From NCBI RefSeq assembly GCF_015710575.1, contig NZ_CP065373.1, positions 496,001 to 560,000 on the forward strand: a stretch of DNA of 64,000 nt, in the 5' to 3' direction. Below, in pieces: positions 1 to 11,034 of this stretch. Position 1 is the stretch's first letter; every line of letters starts with the position of its first letter. The position numbers were made by a program, and so were the translations under genes. The DNA comes from Mycolicibacterium mengxianglii (GTDB lineage: Bacteria; Actinomycetota; Actinomycetes; Mycobacteriales; Mycobacteriaceae). Below the pieces are notes generated by a model. That model saw only the letters and a program-made list of their open reading frames with translations, made no database searches and was not told the origin of the DNA.

Positions 1-3000
1 ACCGACCTCCCACAAGGGCACCATCACCATCGAGGCACCGCCGGAATTGCCCCGGGTGGTGCCGCCGTCACTGCTGCGCCGGGCGCTGCCCTATCTGATC
101 GTGCTGCTGATCGTCGGCATGATCGTCGCCCTGGTGGCCACCGGTATGCGGTTGATCTCGCCGACGACCCTGTTCTTCCCGTTCGTCCTGCTGTTGGCCG
201 CCACCGCCCTCTACCGCGGTAACGACAACAAGATGCGCACCGAAGAGGTCGACGCCGAGCGTGCCGACTACCTGCGATATCTGTCGGTGGTCCGGGACAA
301 CGTGCGCGCGCAGGCCGAGGCGCAACGGGCGGCGCTGCAGTGGTCGCATCCCGAACCGGCTGTGCTGGCGCAGATCCCGGGTTCTCGGCGGCAGTGGGAG
401 CGTGACCCGCAGGATTCCGACTTCCTGGTATTGCGCGCCGGCCTGGCCGACGTGGCGCTGGACACCACCCTGCGCGTCAAGGACGCCGCCGACGAGATCG
501 ATCTCGAACCGGTGTCCTACAGCGCGCTCCGCGCCCTGCTCGACACCCAGCGGACCGTGTCCGATGCGCCAGTGGGCATCGACCTGACGAAGGTCTCCCG
601 CATCACCGTGGTGGGCGACCCCCACGAGGCCCGGGCCGCAGTGCGGGCGTGGATCGCACAGGCGGTCACCTGGCATGACACCGGCGTGTTGGGTGTCGCC
701 CTGGCCAGCCCGCAGCTGGAGCAGCCGGACTGGTCCTGGTTGAAGTGGTTGCCGCACACCGACATTCCCGGTGAGGTCGACGGCACCGGGCCGGCCCGTT
801 TTCTGGCCGCCAACACCGACGAGCTGATCGCGAAAATCGGACCGGCGCTGGCCGACCGCCCGCTCTTCAAAGGGTCGACCCGATCCCACGACGAGGCCTT
901 GCGGCACCTGGTCATCATCGTCGACGACCCGGGCTATGACCTGAGCGGCTCGGTGCTCTCAGCCGGACTGGCCGGTGTCACGGTGGTGCAGATCGCCGAC
1001 ATCGAACCGGCCGGCGATCAGTATCCCGACCCCGAACGCCCGCAGCTGCTGGTGCGCGACGGGCGTATCCAGCGGTGGTTGACCGGCGGTTGGCAGCCGT
1101 ACGTGGATCGTGCCGATGTGATGGGGACCGCCGAAGCCAACCACCTGGCACGTCAGTTGTCGCGGTGGGATTCCAACCCGACCCACGCAGGGCTGCGGTC
1201 GGCCGCCACCCGGGGTGCCTCCTTCACGACATTGCTCGACATCGCCGATGCCTCGCAGCTGGACGTGCCCACACTGTGGGCGCCGCGTCGCCGCGAGGAC
1301 GAGCTGCGGGTTCCCATCGGGGTGACGGCCACCGGCGAACCGTTGTACTTCGACCTCAAGGACGAAGCCGAAGGCGGGATGGGACCGCACGGTCTGATGA
1401 TCGGCATGACGGGCTCCGGAAAGTCCCAGACCCTGATGTCGATCCTGCTGTCGCTGTTGACAACCCACTCCGCCGACCGACTCATCGTGATCTACGCCGA
1501 CTTCAAGGGCGAGGCCGGCGCCGACATCTTCCGCAACTTCCCGCAGGTCGTCGCGGTCATCTCCAACATGGCGGAGAAGAAGTCGCTCGCCGATCGGTTC
1601 GCCGACACGCTGCGCGGCGAGGTGGCCAGGCGCGAGACGCTGCTGCGTGAAGCGGGGCGACGGATCCAGGGCAGCGCGTTCAACTCGGTCACCGAGTACG
1701 AGGCGGCGGTCGACGCGGGTCATGACCTGGCACCGATACCGACGTTGTTCGTCGTGGCCGACGAATTCACGCTGATGCTCGCCGACCATCCCGAGTACGC
1801 TGAGCTGTTCGATTACGTTGCCCGCAAGGGTCGTTCGTTCCGCATCCACATCCTGTTCGCGTCGCAGACCCTCGACGTCGGCAAGATCAAGGACATCGAC
1901 AAGAACACGTCGTACCGGATCGGTCTGAAGGTGGCCAGCCCGTCGGTGTCACGGCAGATCATCGGTGTCGAAGACGCCTACCACATCGAATCCGGTAAGG
2001 AACACAAAGGCGTCGGCTTCCTGGTGCCTGCTCCCGGCGCTGAGCCGATCAAGTTCCGCAGCACCTACGTCGACGGAATCTACGAACCGCCGCGGACGCC
2101 CACCTCTTTTGTGGTGCCGACGGTTTCGGAGCCCAAACTGTTCACCGCCGGTGCTGTCGAACTCGACCAGGACGTGGTGTTCCTGCCTGAGGGTGAAACG
2201 GTGTCTGGGCCGCCGAAGAAGCTGATCGCGACCATCGGCAACCAGCTGGCGCACTACGGTCCGCAGGCACCCCCACTGTGGTTGCCGCCGTTGGACGAGC
2301 CGGTTGCGCTCACCTCGGTGCTTGCACACGCCGGGATCGAGGAACGGCAGTGGCGCTGGCCACTCGGCCAGATCGACCGCCCGTTCGAGATGCGCAGGGA
2401 TCCGCTGGTGTTCGACGCCCGCTCCGCGGCGGGCAACCTGCTGATTCACGGCGGCCCGAAGTCGGGCAAGTCGACCGCACTGTTGACGTTCATCCAGTCG
2501 GCAGCCGAACTGCACAGTCCCCGTGAGGTGAGCTTCTACTGCCTCGACTACGGCGGCGGCGTCCTGCAGGCCGCCTCGGAGCTGGCCCACGTCGGCAGTG
2601 TGGCCTCGCCGCTGGACGGTGAGCGGATCCGACGCACCTTCGGTGAGATCGAGGCGTTGCTGCGGTCACGGCAGCGCGGCGGTGACCGTGCTCGCGACGA
2701 TGGCTACGGCCATGTCTTTCTGGTGATCGACAACCTGTACGCGTTCAGCCGGGACAACACCGACCAGTTCAACACCCGCAACCCGTTGCTGGCCAAGGTG
2801 ACCGAGTTGGCCAACTCGGGTCTGGCCTACGGGATCCACGTCGTGATCACCACACCGAACTGGCTGGAGGTCCCGCTGGCGATGCGCGACGGCCTGGGGC
2901 TTCGGCTGGAGCTGCGGCTACCCGATCCCCGTGACAGCAATGTCCGTGTTCCGGGGGCGCTGCGTCGGCCCGCCGAAAGTGTTCCGGCTGACCAGCCGGG

Positions 3001-3931
3001 TCGCGGCCTGACCATGGCCGCCGAGCAGTTCCTGTTCGCCGCACCGGAATTGGACCGGGCCGCGGCCATCAGCGCCCGCCATTCCGGAGTCAGCGCACCG
3101 CCGGTGCGGTTGCTGCCCACCAATCTGGAAGCGGCGGTCGTGGCTCCGCTGTACCGCGGGCCCGAGCAGTTGGTCCTCGGCCAGCGCGAGGACGACCTGG
3201 CGCCGGTGGTGGTGGACTTCGGTGACCAGCCGCTGATGATGGTTTTCGGTGACACCAAGTCGGGCAAGACGACCCTGCTACGGCACCTCATCCGGACCGT
3301 GCGCGACAATTCCACCGCAGATCGGGTGGCGTTCACGGTGCTCGACCGTCGCCTGCATCTGGTCGAGGAGCCGTTGTTCCCGGACAACGAGTACACCGCG
3401 AACATCGACCGGGTGACCCCGGCGATGCTCGGTCTGGCGGCGATCATCGAACAGCGCCGTCCCCCGCAGGGCCTGTCCTCGGACGAATTGAAGCGCTGGA
3501 CCCTTTCCTCCCGGTCGGGCCAACTGCACTACCTGATCATCGACGACGTGGACGCCATCCCCGACGGCCCGGCGATGAGCGGCCAGTACGTGGGGCAGCG
3601 TCCGTGGACACCGATCATCGGATTGCTCTCGCAGGCAGCTGATCTCGGGCTGCGGGTGATCGTCACCGCCCGGGCCACCGGGTCGGCGCATGCGCTGATG
3701 ACCAACCCGTTGTTGCGCCGGCTCAATGACCTGCAGGCCACCACCCTGATGCTCTCCGGCAACCCGGCCGAGAGTGGAAAGATCCGCGGTCATCGGTTCG
3801 CACGTCAGCTCGCAGGCCGCGCCGTGCTCCTCGATGACGGCGACACCCCCACCCATCTCCAGCTGGTGAACCCATTGGCCGGAACCGAAGTCGAAGACGG
3901 CTCGCACATGAGAGGCAGGAACCAATCGTGA
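1..3931 (+). CDS. eccC3: ESX-3 secretion ATPase EccC3 (5' partial)
   Basis: This is the FtsK/SpoIIIE-type motor of the ESX-3 type VII secretion system, which sits in the inner membrane and recognises and drives export of Esx and PE/PPE substrates. The reading frame is open from base 2, so the gene starts upstream. By memory of the M. tuberculosis protein only about 14 residues are missing; the TTG at 47 is an internal codon, not the start. Two membrane helices lie at about fragment residues 28-50 and 53-72. Three ATPase domains follow, with P-loops GMTGSGKS (about 467), GGPKSGKS (about 815) and GDTKSGKT (about 1083). The Walker B of domain 1 is canonical (VVADEF), while domain 2 has VIDN and domain 3 IIDD. 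Degenerate second and third ATPase sites are usual in EccC. The stop overlaps the PE start by 4 bases. Confidence 0.97.
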
Positions 3932-4254
3932 CTCTTCGCGTCGTTCCCGAAGGAATGGCCGCCGCCAGCGCGGCGGTCGAAGCTCTCGCCGCCCGGCTCG
4001 CGGCAGCCCACGCGGCCGCGGCACCGGCCATCACCGCGGTGATACCTGCCGCCGCCGATCCGGTATCGCTGCAGACAGCGGTGGGCTTCAGCGCCCAGGG
4101 TGCCGAACACCAGACTGTTGCCGCCCAGGGCGTTGAGGAGTTGGGCCGCTCCGGCGCCGGTATCGGTGAGTCCGGAAGCAGTTATGCCACCGGCGATGCG
4201 CAGGCCGCGAACTCCTGGGCTCCGGTGTATCTTTCGCGCAGCGGCGGGCTATGA
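3928..4254 (+). CDS. PE5: ESX-3 PE protein (PE5-like)
   Basis: This is a PE-domain protein of 108 residues, nearly all of it PE domain, that is expected to pair with the following PPE protein and be exported through ESX-3. It starts with GTG inside the eccC3 stop (GTGA overlap). The sequence is alanine-rich and helical throughout, beginning TLRVVPEG, and carries the type VII secretion signal YxxxD as YATGD at residues 86-90. It overlaps the PPE start by 4 bases (ATGA), which fits translational coupling of a PE/PPE heterodimer. The symbol follows its position in the ESX-3 operon and its close resemblance to M. tuberculosis PE5. In M. tuberculosis PE5-PPE4 is linked to siderophore-dependent iron acquisition. 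Confidence 0.93.
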
Positions 4255-5878: not shown

Positions 5879-6172
5879 ATGAGTATGTTGGACGCTCACA
5901 TTCCCCAGATCATCGCCTCGGAGTCGGCCTTCGCGGCCAAGACGGCCGTGATGCGCAGCACCATCGCCCAGGCAGAACAGGCGGCGATGTCGGCGCAGGC
6001 ATTCCACATGGGCGAGTCGTCCGTGGCCTTCCAGGGAGCGCACGCCCGTTTCCTCGAAGTTGCCGCGAAAGTGAACACCCTGCTCGACGTCGCCCAGGTC
6101 AATCTCGGTGATGCCGGTGCCACCTATGTCGCCGAGGACGCGGCAGCCGCCAGCACGTACGGAGGAATCTGA
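5879..6172 (+). CDS. esxG: ESX-3 secreted protein EsxG
   Basis: EsxG is a 97-residue WXG100-family protein that forms a tight heterodimer with EsxH and is the signature ESX-3 substrate. The sequence closely follows the mycobacterial EsxG pattern ([32 protein letters not shown]). As in other EsxG proteins the loop where WXG would be expected has GESSVAF and no tryptophan. A YxxxD/E-type signal is visible as YVAED near residue 83. A GGAGAG ribosome site lies a few bases before the ATG. The stop overlaps the esxH ATG by one base (TGATG). Confidence 0.96.
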
Positions 6173-6459
6173 TGTCCCAGATCATGTACAACTACCCGGC
6201 GATGCTCGGGCACGCCGGCGAGATGTCCGGTTATGCCGGCGCGTTGCACGCCATCGGCGCCGACATCGCCGCCGAACAGGCTGCGCTGCAGGGGGCTTGG
6301 CAGGGTGAAACCGGCATGACGTACCAGGCCTGGCAGGCACAGTGGAACACCGCCATGGAGGAGCTGGTGCGGGCGTACCGCGCGATGGCCACCACCCATG
6401 AGACCAACACGGTGTCCATGCAGGCCCGCGATCAGGCCGAAGGGGCGAAGTGGGGCTAG
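6172..6459 (+). CDS. esxH: ESX-3 secreted protein EsxH (TB10.4-like)
   Basis: EsxH is a 95-residue WXG100 protein and the partner of EsxG. The dimer is exported by ESX-3 and is implicated in metal acquisition and host interaction in pathogens. The WXG motif is W43-Q44-G45. A strong GGAGGA ribosome site lies within the end of esxG. His14 and His76, described as zinc ligands in the M. tuberculosis protein, are present, but residue 70, His in M. tuberculosis, is Arg here. Otherwise the protein is nearly identical to other EsxH proteins ([14 protein letters not shown] at the start, AEGAKWG at the end). Confidence 0.96.
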
Positions 6460-7364: not shown

Positions 7365-8780
7365 ATGAGTGAGTCCCCGGTCCTGCCCATCGTCAGGGTG
7401 GCCATCCTCAGCGACAGCCGGATGACGGAGATGGCGCTGCCCGCGGAACTTCCGCTACGCGAGGTGCTTCCGGCCGTCCAGCGGCTGTTGCCGACCGACG
7501 TCGAGGACACAGCCACCACGCCGGGTGGGCTGAGTCTGGCTCCGATCGGCGGTGCGCCGTTCAGTCTGGACGCCAGCCTGGACACCGTAGGGGTGGTCGA
7601 CGGTGACCTGCTTGCGCTGCAATCGCTCCCGGCCGGGCCCGCCGCGCCGGGGATCGTCGAGGACATCGCCGACGCCGCAGTGATCTTCTCCGCGGCACGG
7701 CTGCAGCCCTGGGGACTTCGCCACATCCAGCTCGGCGCCAGGGCCGCGGTGGTGGCCCTGATCCTCCTTGCGACCGGCCTCGGTGTCGCGCATACCGTCG
7801 CCGCGGACGAGCCCATCGGGCTCTATGTGGTGAGCGTTCTCGCAGCGGCCACCGCGGTGGCCGCGCTCTTGCTGCGGGCCCGCTCGCAGCGGCCTGCGGC
7901 CGAGATCTCCATCGTCGCGCTGGCGCCGATCGCCGCCGCGTTCACGCTGGCCGTACCCGGTGACTTCGGGGCGGCGCAGGTACTACTGGGCGCTGCCGGC
8001 GTGACGGCCTGGTCGCTGATCAGCGTCATCCTGGCTTCCCCCGGCAGTGCTGAAGAGGCGCAGCGGTCGCGGGCCTTCTTCACCGCCACCAGCGTGGTGG
8101 GCTTCGGCGTGTTGTTGGCCGCGGGCGCGGCGTTGATCTGGTCGCTGCCGTTGCTCACGCTGGGCTGCGGTCTGATCGTGCTGGCGCTGCTGGTGACGGT
8201 GCAGGCTGCCCAGCTTTCGGCGATGTGCGCGCGATTGCCGCTACCGGTCATTCCCGCCCCGGGTGACCCCGCACCGTCGGCGCCACCCCTGAGCGTGCTG
8301 CGGGACCTGCCGCGGCGCGTACGGATCAGCGAAGCCCATCAGACGGGATTCATCGCCGGCGCGGTGCTGCTGTCGGTCCTCGGCGTGTTGGCGATCGCCG
8401 GACGGCCCGAGGCCCCGGGTGTGTGGGGTTGGTACGTGGTGGCCGCGGTAGGTGCTGCCGCGGTGCTGCGGGCCCGGGTGTGGGACACCGTGTCCTGCAA
8501 GGCATGGCTGTTGGCCCAGCCACATCTGGTGACGGTGCTGCTGACGGTGCTGTTCATCGTCCAAGAGCGTTACCTGGCGGCACTGTGGTCCTCGCTGGTG
8601 CTGGCAGCGTTGGTGGCCATCTGGTGCTTTGTCGCCACCAACCCCAGACTTGCCTCCGCAGACAGCTATTCACTGCCGATGCGCCGCGTGGTCGGTTTCC
8701 TGGCCTCCGCTATCGACGCCTCGCTGATCCCGGTGATGGCATACCTGGTCGGTATCTTCACCTGGATCCTCAATCGATGA
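7365..8780 (+). CDS. eccD3: ESX-3 membrane channel component EccD3
   Basis: EccD3 is the polytopic membrane component of the ESX-3 secretion complex. The 471-residue protein has an N-terminal cytosolic ubiquitin-like domain (about residues 5-85) followed by about eleven membrane helices, the usual EccD layout. The ATG at 7365 (SESPVLPIVRVAIL) is chosen because it follows an AAGAGAAG ribosome site and matches the family N terminus; the frame is open further upstream but would run back into espG3. The stop overlaps the mycP3 start by 4 bases. Confidence 0.95.
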   Translation: MSESPVLPIVRVAILSDSRMTEMALPAELPLREVLPAVQRLLPTDVEDTATTPGGLSLAPIGGAPFSLDASLDTVGVVDGDLLALQSLPAGPAAPGIVEDIADAAVIFSAARLQPWGLRHIQLGARAAVVALILLATGLGVAHTVAADEPIGLYVVSVLAAATAVAALLLRARSQRPAAEISIVALAPIAAAFTLAVPGDFGAAQVLLGAAGVTAWSLISVILASPGSAEEAQRSRAFFTATSVVGFGVLLAAGAALIWSLPLLTLGCGLIVLALLVTVQAAQLSAMCARLPLPVIPAPGDPAPSAPPLSVLRDLPRRVRISEAHQTGFIAGAVLLSVLGVLAIAGRPEAPGVWGWYVVAAVGAAAVLRARVWDTVSCKAWLLAQPHLVTVLLTVLFIVQERYLAALWSSLVLAALVAIWCFVATNPRLASADSYSLPMRRVVGFLASAIDASLIPVMAYLVGIFTWILNR

Positions 8781-10171
8781 TCCGAGCCGGATTGCGGTGC
8801 GTGGCCGCCGGGGCGGCGGTGCTGCTTGCGGCGGGCCCGACGGCGTGGGCGGTCAGCCCTCCGGTGGTGGACCCCACCGCGCAGCCACCGTCGGGCAGCA
8901 CCGGACCGGTTGCGCCCATGACGCAACGCGGTGAGTGCATCATCACCGGGCTCACCCCGGTGTTCGCCGCCGCCGCCGTTCCCACGGGTCAAACCATGCT
9001 GAATGTGCCTGGCGCCTGGCGATTCTCGCGGGGCGAGGGGCAGACGGTCGCGGTGATCGACACGGGTGTGCAGCCTGGACCGCGGCTGCCCAACGTCGAC
9101 GGGGGTGGTGACTACGTCGGGAAGACCGATGGGCTCACCGACTGCGACGGGCAGGGCACGATGGTCGCCGGCATCATCGCAGGACAACCGGGTGACGACG
9201 GTTTCGCCGGCGTGGCACCGGCAGCGCGGGTGTTGTCGATCCGGCAGACCTCGAGGATGTTCTCGCCGAGCGCCCCGGCCGAGGACCAGGCCGCCGCGCA
9301 GGCCCGCATCGACATCGCGTCGCTGGCCCGAGCGGTGGTGCGTGCCGCCGACGAAGGGGCACGCGTCATCCACATCTCGGCCGTCACCTGCCTCGGCACG
9401 GACAGCACCATCGACCAGGCCACCCTGGGTGCGGCACTGCGGTACGCGGCGTTGGACAAGGATGCGGTGATCGTCGCCGCGGCAGGCAATACCGGCCCGG
9501 GTGGCGGCACCGGTGGACCCGCCTGCCAGTCCAACCCCCTGAACAACGTCGGACCCTCGGAGGACCCGCGCAACTGGGCCGGTGTGGGTTCCATTTCGGC
9601 ACCGTCGTGGTGGCAGCCCTACGTGCTGTCGGTGGGATCGCTGACTCCGCAGGGCCAGCCCTCGGCGTTCACGATGGCAGGCCCGTGGGTCGGCATCGCC
9701 GCACCGGGGCAGGACATCGTGTCGGTCAGCAATGCGCCGGACGGGGGCTTGGCCAACGGTGTCCCGAACAACCGCAACGAACTCGCCGCGGTCCACGGAT
9801 CCAGTTATGCCGCCGCATACGTGTCCGGTGTTGCTGCGCTGGTGCGCAGCCGTTTTCCGGAGATGCGCGCCGCCCAGGTGGTCGAACGATTGACTGCTAC
9901 CGCCCACAATGGCGCGCACACCCCGTCGAACCTGGTGGGGGCCGGTACCGTCGACGCGGTCGCCGCACTGACCTGGCAACTGCCCGTGCCCGCTGCGGGC
10001 GACCAACCCCCCACCCGGATCGCGGCACCCGTGGATCCGGAACCGGCCAACCACCTCCCGCGCAATGTGGCCTTCGGCGGTACCGCAGCGCTGGTGCTGG
10101 CGGTAGCCGTGACCGCACTCGTGGTGCAGCGCCGCAGACAAGAGTCTCCAGGAGAGGAACGAGTCCGATGA
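8777..10171 (+). CDS. mycP3: Mycosin MycP3 with catalytic His replaced by Gln
   Basis: Mycosins are membrane-anchored subtilisin-like proteases attached to the periplasmic face of type VII secretion complexes. This 464-residue protein has a signal peptide (cleavage likely after AWA, about residue 25), the subtilase domain, and a C-terminal membrane helix before a basic tail. Asp95 (VIDTGV), the oxyanion Asn238 (AAAGN) and Ser343 (GSSYAA) are in place. The His motif, normally DGHGT, reads DGQGT: codon 126 at 9152-9154 is CAG. The four cysteines of the mycosin extension and domain (54, 123, 205, 250) are kept, so the fold looks intact but the charge-relay triad is incomplete. Work on other mycosins found that the protein, more than its protease activity, is needed for secretion. 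One C/T-to-G base change would explain the substitution. Confidence 0.95.
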   Translation: MIRAGLRCVAAGAAVLLAAGPTAWAVSPPVVDPTAQPPSGSTGPVAPMTQRGECIITGLTPVFAAAAVPTGQTMLNVPGAWRFSRGEGQTVAVIDTGVQPGPRLPNVDGGGDYVGKTDGLTDCDGQGTMVAGIIAGQPGDDGFAGVAPAARVLSIRQTSRMFSPSAPAEDQAAAQARIDIASLARAVVRAADEGARVIHISAVTCLGTDSTIDQATLGAALRYAALDKDAVIVAAAGNTGPGGGTGGPACQSNPLNNVGPSEDPRNWAGVGSISAPSWWQPYVLSVGSLTPQGQPSAFTMAGPWVGIAAPGQDIVSVSNAPDGGLANGVPNNRNELAAVHGSSYAAAYVSGVAALVRSRFPEMRAAQVVERLTATAHNGAHTPSNLVGAGTVDAVAALTWQLPVPAAGDQPPTRIAAPVDPEPANHLPRNVAFGGTAALVLAVAVTALVVQRRRQESPGEERVR

Positions 10172-11034
10172 CGGGCCGAATCATGTTGGCGCTGTTGGCC
10201 GTTATTCCGGCCGCGATGGCCTACCCGTGGCAGTCGACGCTGGACTGGTGGGTGTTCGGGATCGCCGTCGCGGTGCTGATCGTGGTGTTCGCATGGTGGC
10301 GCGGAACCTTCGTGACCACCCTGGTGGCGCGACGCGCCGCGTTGTTGCGCCGCCGAGACGAACCGCGGCATCAGGTGCAGCACAGCGACACCGACGCCCG
10401 CACCACGGCCGTCCTACAGGTGCTCTCCGGCGACGACGACCAGCAGCTGCTGTCGACACTGGCCGGGTACCTCGACAGGTACGGAATCCGATGTGACGCG
10501 GTGCGGGTCACACACCGTGACACCCCAGCCGGGCGTAGCACCTGGGTGGGGCTCACGCTGTCGGCGGCGGCGAATCTCGGTGCGCTGCAAGCACGGTCTG
10601 CGAACATCCCGCTGCGCGAAACCGCGCAGGTCACCCTGCGGCGGCTCGCCGACCACCTGCGCGAGCTGGGCTGGTCCGTCAGCACCGTCGATGCGAACAT
10701 CCCCGACCTGCTCGGTCCCGCCCCCAAGGAGCGTTGGCGGTCGGTGCAGGACGGCGAGCATGGGTACCTCACCTGCTACGCGGTGCCCGCCGGTGACAGT
10801 CTGGCCGAGACGTTGGACGAGGTGCGCACGGCGTCGTCCAGCGAGGTGTGGACGGTGGTCGAACTGAGCGGCATGCCGACGCGACCGGATGTCGCAGCCG
10901 TCTGTGCCATCCGGACCGACGAACTGCCCGACGCCGCACCGGTGCCCAACCTGCGGCCGCTGCGGGGACAACAGCGCAGGACGCTGGCGACACTGCACCC
11001 CGAATCGACCGCACGCCTGGCGCTCAGCATCTGA
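10168..11034 (+). CDS. eccE3: ESX-3 membrane component EccE3
   Basis: EccE3 is the peripheral membrane subunit of the ESX-3 core complex and here the last gene of the operon. The 288-residue protein has two N-terminal membrane helices (about 3-20 and 24-42) and a soluble domain with the blocks WVGLTLSAAANLGAL and AQVTLRRLADHL. The ATG at 10168 overlaps the mycP3 stop (ATGA) and follows CCAGGAGAGG. The next gene runs the other way and ends 7 bases downstream. Confidence 0.94.
   Translation: MTGRIMLALLAVIPAAMAYPWQSTLDWWVFGIAVAVLIVVFAWWRGTFVTTLVARRAALLRRRDEPRHQVQHSDTDARTTAVLQVLSGDDDQQLLSTLAGYLDRYGIRCDAVRVTHRDTPAGRSTWVGLTLSAAANLGALQARSANIPLRETAQVTLRRLADHLRELGWSVSTVDANIPDLLGPAPKERWRSVQDGEHGYLTCYAVPAGDSLAETLDEVRTASSSEVWTVVELSGMPTRPDVAAVCAIRTDELPDAAPVPNLRPLRGQQRRTLATLHPESTARLALSI

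What the first reader, a model, noticed from the sequence alone, without database searches (positions are those of the whole stretch)
9152..9154. MycP3 has Gln instead of the catalytic His
The subtilisin His motif of mycosins (DGHGT) reads DGQGT, with codon CAG. The Asp, Asn and Ser sites and the mycosin cysteines are intact, so the protein looks folded but its charge-relay triad is incomplete. Studies of other mycosins reported that the protein stabilises the secretion complex even without protease activity. A natural protease-dead MycP3 would support a purely structural role for ESX-3. A one-base error is possible.
Basis: partly seen in the sequence, partly recalled or inferred. Interest (0 to 1): 0.75.

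Follow-up and report, generated by a model that had tools for sequence, protein, structure and literature searches.

The report
Naturally protease-dead mycosin of ESX-3
A secretion-machine protein long called a protease has lost a catalytic residue in this mycobacterium, and its relatives have lost catalytic residues many separate times while keeping the rest of the protein, which suggests it serves mainly as a structural part there.

Summary
Codon 126 of mycP3 (window 9152-9154) is CAG, Gln, where the subtilase catalytic His belongs. Asp95, Asn238, Ser343 and four cysteines are intact, and the gene sits in an ESX-3 locus with eccA to eccE. A sequencing error is very unlikely: a 99% identical protein and eight 71-78% relatives also carry Gln. 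The finding widens: in one evenly drawn genus sample, 21 of 90 MycP3 copies (18 of 83 genomes) lack the triad Asp, His or Ser, against 0 of 58 complete MycP1, 1 of 40 MycP5-like and 3 of 78 MycP4. A tree of 242 MycP3 rows gives 24-32 losses if losses are never undone. Broken copies are open, keep 139 of 146 conserved columns at 90% or more, and show dN/dS like intact ones (0.14 against 0.17). No substitute His is consistent. Best reading: a natural pseudoprotease kept as a structural ESX-3 part. Activity is untested, and other mycosins in the cell could cut in its place. Three in four sampled MycP3s keep the triad, so proteolysis is probably a lineage-specific extra. I found no published report in the open library searched.

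The parts
8777..10171 (+). mycP3, mycosin of ESX-3, 464 aa; start overlaps the eccD3 stop and stop overlaps the eccE3 start
9152..9154 (+). codon 126 CAG = Gln at the catalytic His position
9059..9061 (+). codon 95, catalytic Asp, intact
9371..9373 (+). codon 199, His where most intact relatives have Asn; His there in 1 of 25 His126-lacking rows, so not a consistent substitute
9488..9490 (+). codon 238, oxyanion Asn, intact
9803..9805 (+). codon 343, catalytic Ser, intact
47..3931 (+). eccC3
   Evidence: TIGR03924 and TIGR03925 over cut-off
3928..4254 (+). PE protein gene
   Evidence: PF00934
4251..5837 (+). PPE protein gene
   Evidence: PF00823
5879..6172 (+). probable esxG (size and place only; no NCBIfam or Pfam match)
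   Evidence: inference
6172..6459 (+). esxH-like WXG100 gene
   Evidence: TIGR03930
6481..7335 (+). espG3
   Evidence: PF14011
7365..8780 (+). eccD3 (start codon inferred; one search was given one codon more)
   Evidence: TIGR03920; frame
10168..11034 (+). eccE3
   Evidence: TIGR03923

Best explanation
This is a genuine, natural pseudoprotease form of MycP3. The His-to-Gln change removes the general base of the Ser-His-Asp relay, so peptide-bond cleavage should be lost or reduced by orders of magnitude. The protein is kept because its other job remains: as a membrane-anchored periplasmic cap, presumably a trimer as in ESX-5, it holds the EccB ring and the ESX membrane complex together. In ESX-3 the proteolytic function is under weak or no selection in many lineages, so triad residues are lost again and again (His to Gln, Arg, Thr or Tyr; Ser to Gly, Asp or Ala; Asp to Gly or Ser) while the scaffold is preserved. 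Shown here: the residue, its recurrence, repeated losses, preserved frame and core, and low dN/dS among relatives. Inferred: loss of activity, and the structural role in ESX-3.
For: Gln in P0002, in eight further proteins at 71-78% identity and in the more distant loci L036, L037, L039, L040 and L046. ESX-3 locus with EccA to EccE, PE, PPE and EspG. Triad broken in 21 of 90 MycP3 copies of an evenly drawn genus sample, in 18 of 83 genomes. Controls from the same sample: MycP4 3 of 78, MycP1 0 of 58, MycP5-like 1 of 40; Fisher p 0.0003, 1e-5 and 0.002 one by one and 8e-8 pooled, on counts not corrected for kinship. Loss-only counts on the MycP3 tree run from 32 with no support filter to 24 at support 95, and from 13 to 9 in the even sample; 22 independent pairs differ in triad state on supported branches. 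dN/dS medians: broken-broken 0.139 (12 pairs), mixed 0.180 (16), intact-intact 0.168 (132). Of 146 columns at 95% or more in intact rows, 139 are at 90% or more in broken ones; the four cysteines hold in 74 of 74 broken rows. On paralogues: MycP1 S354A and MycP5 active-site mutants still secrete, and mycosins stabilise the complex (PMC5082899, passages; PMC8131196, passages).
Against: No activity assay exists. The passages read on the ESX-3 structure name no MycP3 (PMC6986878) and PMC8131196 says earlier T7SS structures lacked MycP, so the cap role in ESX-3 is carried over from ESX-5. The window's genome also has a MycP4 whose triad reads intact, so proteolysis in trans is possible. Most sampled MycP3s keep the triad, so proteolysis probably matters somewhere. 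The 12 broken-broken dN/dS pairs all come from Ser-to-Gly copies of two related groups and are not independent; for His-lacking copies there are only five mixed pairs (0.137 to 0.180), and the window gene itself was too far from any held DNA to be paired. Co-loss of the oxyanion Asn is strong in raw counts (70 of 104 broken against 19 of 207 intact) but not significant in independent pairs (median p 0.69). MycP4 also lost Ser in one substitution type, so the trend is not confined to MycP3.
Confidence: 0.83

Rival explanations
1. Catalysis survives by another route: a different His, the Gln itself, or substrate-assisted cleavage in which a substrate His does the work (known for engineered subtilisin lacking its His; recalled, not looked up).
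For: Only one triad residue is missing in the window protein; His199 and His340 lie in or beside active-site motifs.
Against: His199 occurs in 1 of 25 His126-lacking rows and His340 in 3 of 25, and His340 also occurs in 3 intact rows. The only two columns with His in over 40% of the His126-lacking rows are mostly His in intact rows too. Many other lineages lost Ser, which these routes cannot replace.
Confidence: 0.08
2. The gene is decaying: MycP3 and perhaps ESX-3 are on the way to loss in this lineage.
For: Broken rows sometimes carry two or three hits: 12 of 74 in the reduced set.
Against: Open frame and locus with EccA to EccE; dN/dS of broken pairs as low as of intact ones, with the limits named above; the four cysteines kept in 74 of 74 broken rows.
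Confidence: 0.04
3. MycP3 proteolysis is still needed but is supplied in trans by another mycosin of the cell, such as MycP4. This is not exclusive with the best explanation.
For: Each of the 22 genomes with a broken MycP3 that were searched holds further mycosin matches. van Winden et al. favoured redundancy with other proteases for MycP5 (PMC5082899, passages).
Against: Mycosins are described as working specifically within their own ESX system (PMC5082899 introduction). No fixed partner: at the cut-offs used, three searches found no MycP1 or MycP5 in the window genome and no MycP4, MycP1 or MycP5 in G084; G084 does hold other mycosins.
Confidence: 0.15
4. Base-calling or assembly error.
For: One base separates His and Gln codons.
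Against: Same residue in P0002 and in relatives on other contigs, with CAG at six distinct loci outside the window and Gln in 7 of 396 genomes.
Confidence: 0.01

Closest known systems
MycP3 crystal structure, PDB 4kg7 (species Mycobacterium thermoresistibile is recalled)
   Different: 4kg7 keeps His at the position of Gln126
Laboratory active-site mutants MycP1 S354A (PMC5082899, passages read) and MycP5 S461A (named in PMC5156307, first of two parts read)
   Same: Full-length mycosin without a working triad
   Different: Engineered, hit Ser, in ESX-1 and ESX-5; here natural, mostly ESX-3, and hit His, Ser or Asp
CspA and CspC subtilase pseudoproteases of Clostridioides difficile (PMC6636752, passages read)
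   Same: Subtilisin-like proteins that lost triad residues (CspC has Thr and Gly at the His and Ser places) and kept a role
   Different: Spore germination proteins described as confined to one family; not part of a secretion complex

Membership tests
Mycosin (T7SS_mycosin, TIGR03921) | Profile match over the curated cut-off | tested here: met
   378 bits against 278.75
Mycosin (T7SS_mycosin, TIGR03921) | Encoded inside an ESX locus between eccD and eccE | tested here: met
   EccA, EccB, EccC, EccD and EccE models over cut-off, PE, PPE and EspG matches
Mycosin (T7SS_mycosin, TIGR03921) | Conserved cysteines and C-terminal membrane helix | tested here: met
   Cys 54, 123, 205 and 250 invariant in 242 rows; predicted helix 427-455, its membrane nature inferred
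Active subtilase (peptidase S8) | Subtilase fold | tested here: met
Active subtilase (peptidase S8) | Complete Asp-His-Ser triad | tested here: not met
   Gln at the His place
Active subtilase (peptidase S8) | Cleaves peptides | not testable with these tools
   needs a purified protein
Subtilase pseudoprotease | Triad residue missing with the fold kept | tested here: met
Subtilase pseudoprotease | Gene held under purifying selection after the loss | tested here: inconclusive
   low dN/dS in relatives with broken triads, but no close DNA relative of the window gene itself was held

The most novel reading that the evidence does not exclude
Losing MycP3 proteolysis is itself favoured: as protease-dead MycP1 raises ESX-1 secretion in the laboratory, triad loss in MycP3 would release a brake on ESX-3 and its metal uptake, so lineages switch the protease off again and again while the scaffold is held fixed. 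MycP3 would then be a secretion regulator tuned by repeated loss of catalysis.
Probability: 0.15. Interest if true: 0.85.

Novelty: new variant of a known kind. Interest (0 to 1): 0.62.

Why it matters
Mycosins are called proteases, yet in 2016 only one substrate, EspB of MycP1, was known (PMC5082899). Nature appears to have repeated the active-site experiment in ESX-3 some two dozen times or more, with different residues, and left the rest intact. That offers ready-made natural pairs of intact and broken MycP3 to ask whether ESX-3 needs proteolysis at all, and it warns against treating MycP3 of every species as an enzyme. The contrast with MycP1, where none of 58 complete copies was broken, suggests that the protease job differs between ESX systems.

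Tried and rejected
Sequencing error: rejected. A substitute His: rejected as a general explanation. Coupled loss of the oxyanion Asn238 or of Asn199 with triad loss: suggestive in raw counts, not significant in independent pairs (median p 0.69 and 0.125); for rows lacking His the trend with Asn238 even went the other way. Chance pattern hits: 3 of the 10 Gln pattern matches are not mycosins. A published Mycobacterium abscessus mycP3 insertion mutant has an ESX-3 phenotype (PMC9505556, passages read); I first hoped this was a broken MycP3, but the copies that I guess, from genome size and place, to be of that type (L104-L106) are intact, so I make no use of it. Structure: one AlphaFold job with 44 of the proteins gave a moderate model (mean pLDDT 66.5), good for the fold but not for active-site geometry. 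No Rfam match at gathering score in the window. A first loss count with a faulty collapse step gave the same number at every cut-off; it was replaced. Two papers likely to discuss mycosin active sites are not held (PMC3859186 and PMC6442028), so the novelty claim rests on searches of an open-access library only.

Rows dropped: one search listed 101 places; 10 at 46-51% identity (another mycosin type, not examined) and one at 54% (L186, fetched later, triad intact) were left out of the 90. That sample was found with a broken query at E up to 1e-100, which could lean slightly towards its relatives. Controls: all 79 MycP4 and all 59 MycP1 places listed were fetched; of 56 MycP5-like places listed (some are pieces of one gene) 41 regions were. 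Partial copies left out of the control counts: L286 (MycP1), L255 (MycP5-like), L178 (MycP4, no Asp column). For the tree, 311 rows were cut to 310 by length and to 242 by similarity, which keeps 83 of the 90 even-sample rows.

Full report
What is there. The window holds an ESX-3 locus from eccC3 (47-3931) to eccE3 (10168-11034); eccA3 and eccB3 lie just upstream in the same genome (L187). mycP3 runs from 8777 to 10171 and overlaps both neighbours by four bases. Codon 126 is CAG. The crystallised MycP3 4kg7 aligns without gaps there and has His. The genome is one contig of 5,962,395 bases in which the search with this protein found one ESX-3-type mycosin, one MycP4 and a third mycosin that is split over two frames.

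Is it an error? Hardly. P0002, four residues different elsewhere, has Gln too. Among the 121 proteins of the first search (query included; 120 listed of 4052 found) the His is missing in 13 and the Asp-His-Ser triad is incomplete in 20. In the clade of the window protein (18 rows, two of them loci that repeat or nearly repeat a protein row; support 100/99) the states DHNS, DHDS, DQNS, DQDS, DQNA, GQDS, SHDG and DHDG mix, with five changes at the His site alone (letters are residues 95, 126, 238, 343). So this clade lost its active site in several ways, unless some rows regained it.

How wide is it? I took the ESX-3-type mycosins of an evenly drawn sample of 98 genus genomes: 90 copies in 83 genomes, fetched. 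The triad is broken in 21 of 90, in 18 of 83 genomes; in 15 of these 18 every copy in the set is broken, and in one of the 15 (G030) a further, more distant copy is intact. The same sample served for controls: MycP4 broken in 3 of 78 complete copies (one substitution type, Ser to Asn), MycP1 0 of 58, MycP5-like 1 of 40. A second search started from a broken protein, hence biased, added 92 proteins, 58 of them broken; hits named Mycobacterium heraklionense and Mycolicibacter minnesotensis and kumamotonensis have Gly for Ser.

How many losses? On a FastTree tree of 242 reduced rows plus a MycP4 outgroup, with the four catalytic columns masked, the state changes at least 31 times. If losses are never undone the count is 32, falling to 24 when branches under support 95 are collapsed and siblings counted once. 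In the even sample alone it is 13 or 9. Single-gene trees can misplace rows, so I treat about two dozen as the statement to hold; 22 independent pairs on supported branches differ in state. Some changes could be regains, which the method cannot tell.

How it works. Papers read in passages report that active-site mutants of MycP1 and MycP5 still secrete, that MycP1 mutants secrete more, and that mycosins stabilise the complex (PMC5082899); and that a MycP5 trimer caps the EccB5 chamber and is needed for its order (PMC8131196). A commentary, first of two parts read, sums up the former (PMC5156307). Carrying this to ESX-3 is inference. The simplest account is that MycP3 is needed as a cap and that its cutting is dispensable in many lineages. 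The data cannot say whether intact MycP3s cut anything, or whether another mycosin cuts for the broken ones.

Against known things. It is a mycosin by profile, locus and fold, but fails the defining triad of active subtilases. Pseudoprotease subtilases are known (CspA and CspC, PMC6636752, passages), and engineered dead mycosins are known. I saw no report of natural or repeated triad loss in mycosins in searches (open-access papers only, mostly seen as listings; two likely papers not held). Hence: new variant of a known kind, ordinary in chemistry, surprising in frequency.

Noticed in passing
window genome G000:C1:5474454-5476543, minus strand (outside the window): The third mycosin of this genome is split: Asp and His motifs in one open frame, Asn and Ser motifs in another. 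Frameshift or assembly slip; left as it is.
   Followed up: partly
L137, L151, L174: MycP4 with Asn in place of the catalytic Ser (G-T-N-Y) in 3 of 79 fetched copies.
   Followed up: no
MycP5-like loci L228-L257, L287-L297: The oxyanion Asn is Asp in 37 of 41 MycP5-like rows, although the triad is kept in nearly all; odd for an active subtilase.
   Followed up: no
L062/L084, L097/L092, L094/L085: Three genomes (G022, G069, G073) carry two ESX-3-type mycosins each, all six with Gly for Ser and Asp for the oxyanion Asn.
   Followed up: partly
L292: A mycosin-5-like copy in G043 reads GPGF where GTSF is expected.
   Followed up: no
L038, L041, L043: The Gln motif pattern also hits three loci without similarity to MycP3 or MycP4; what they are was not looked into.
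   Followed up: no
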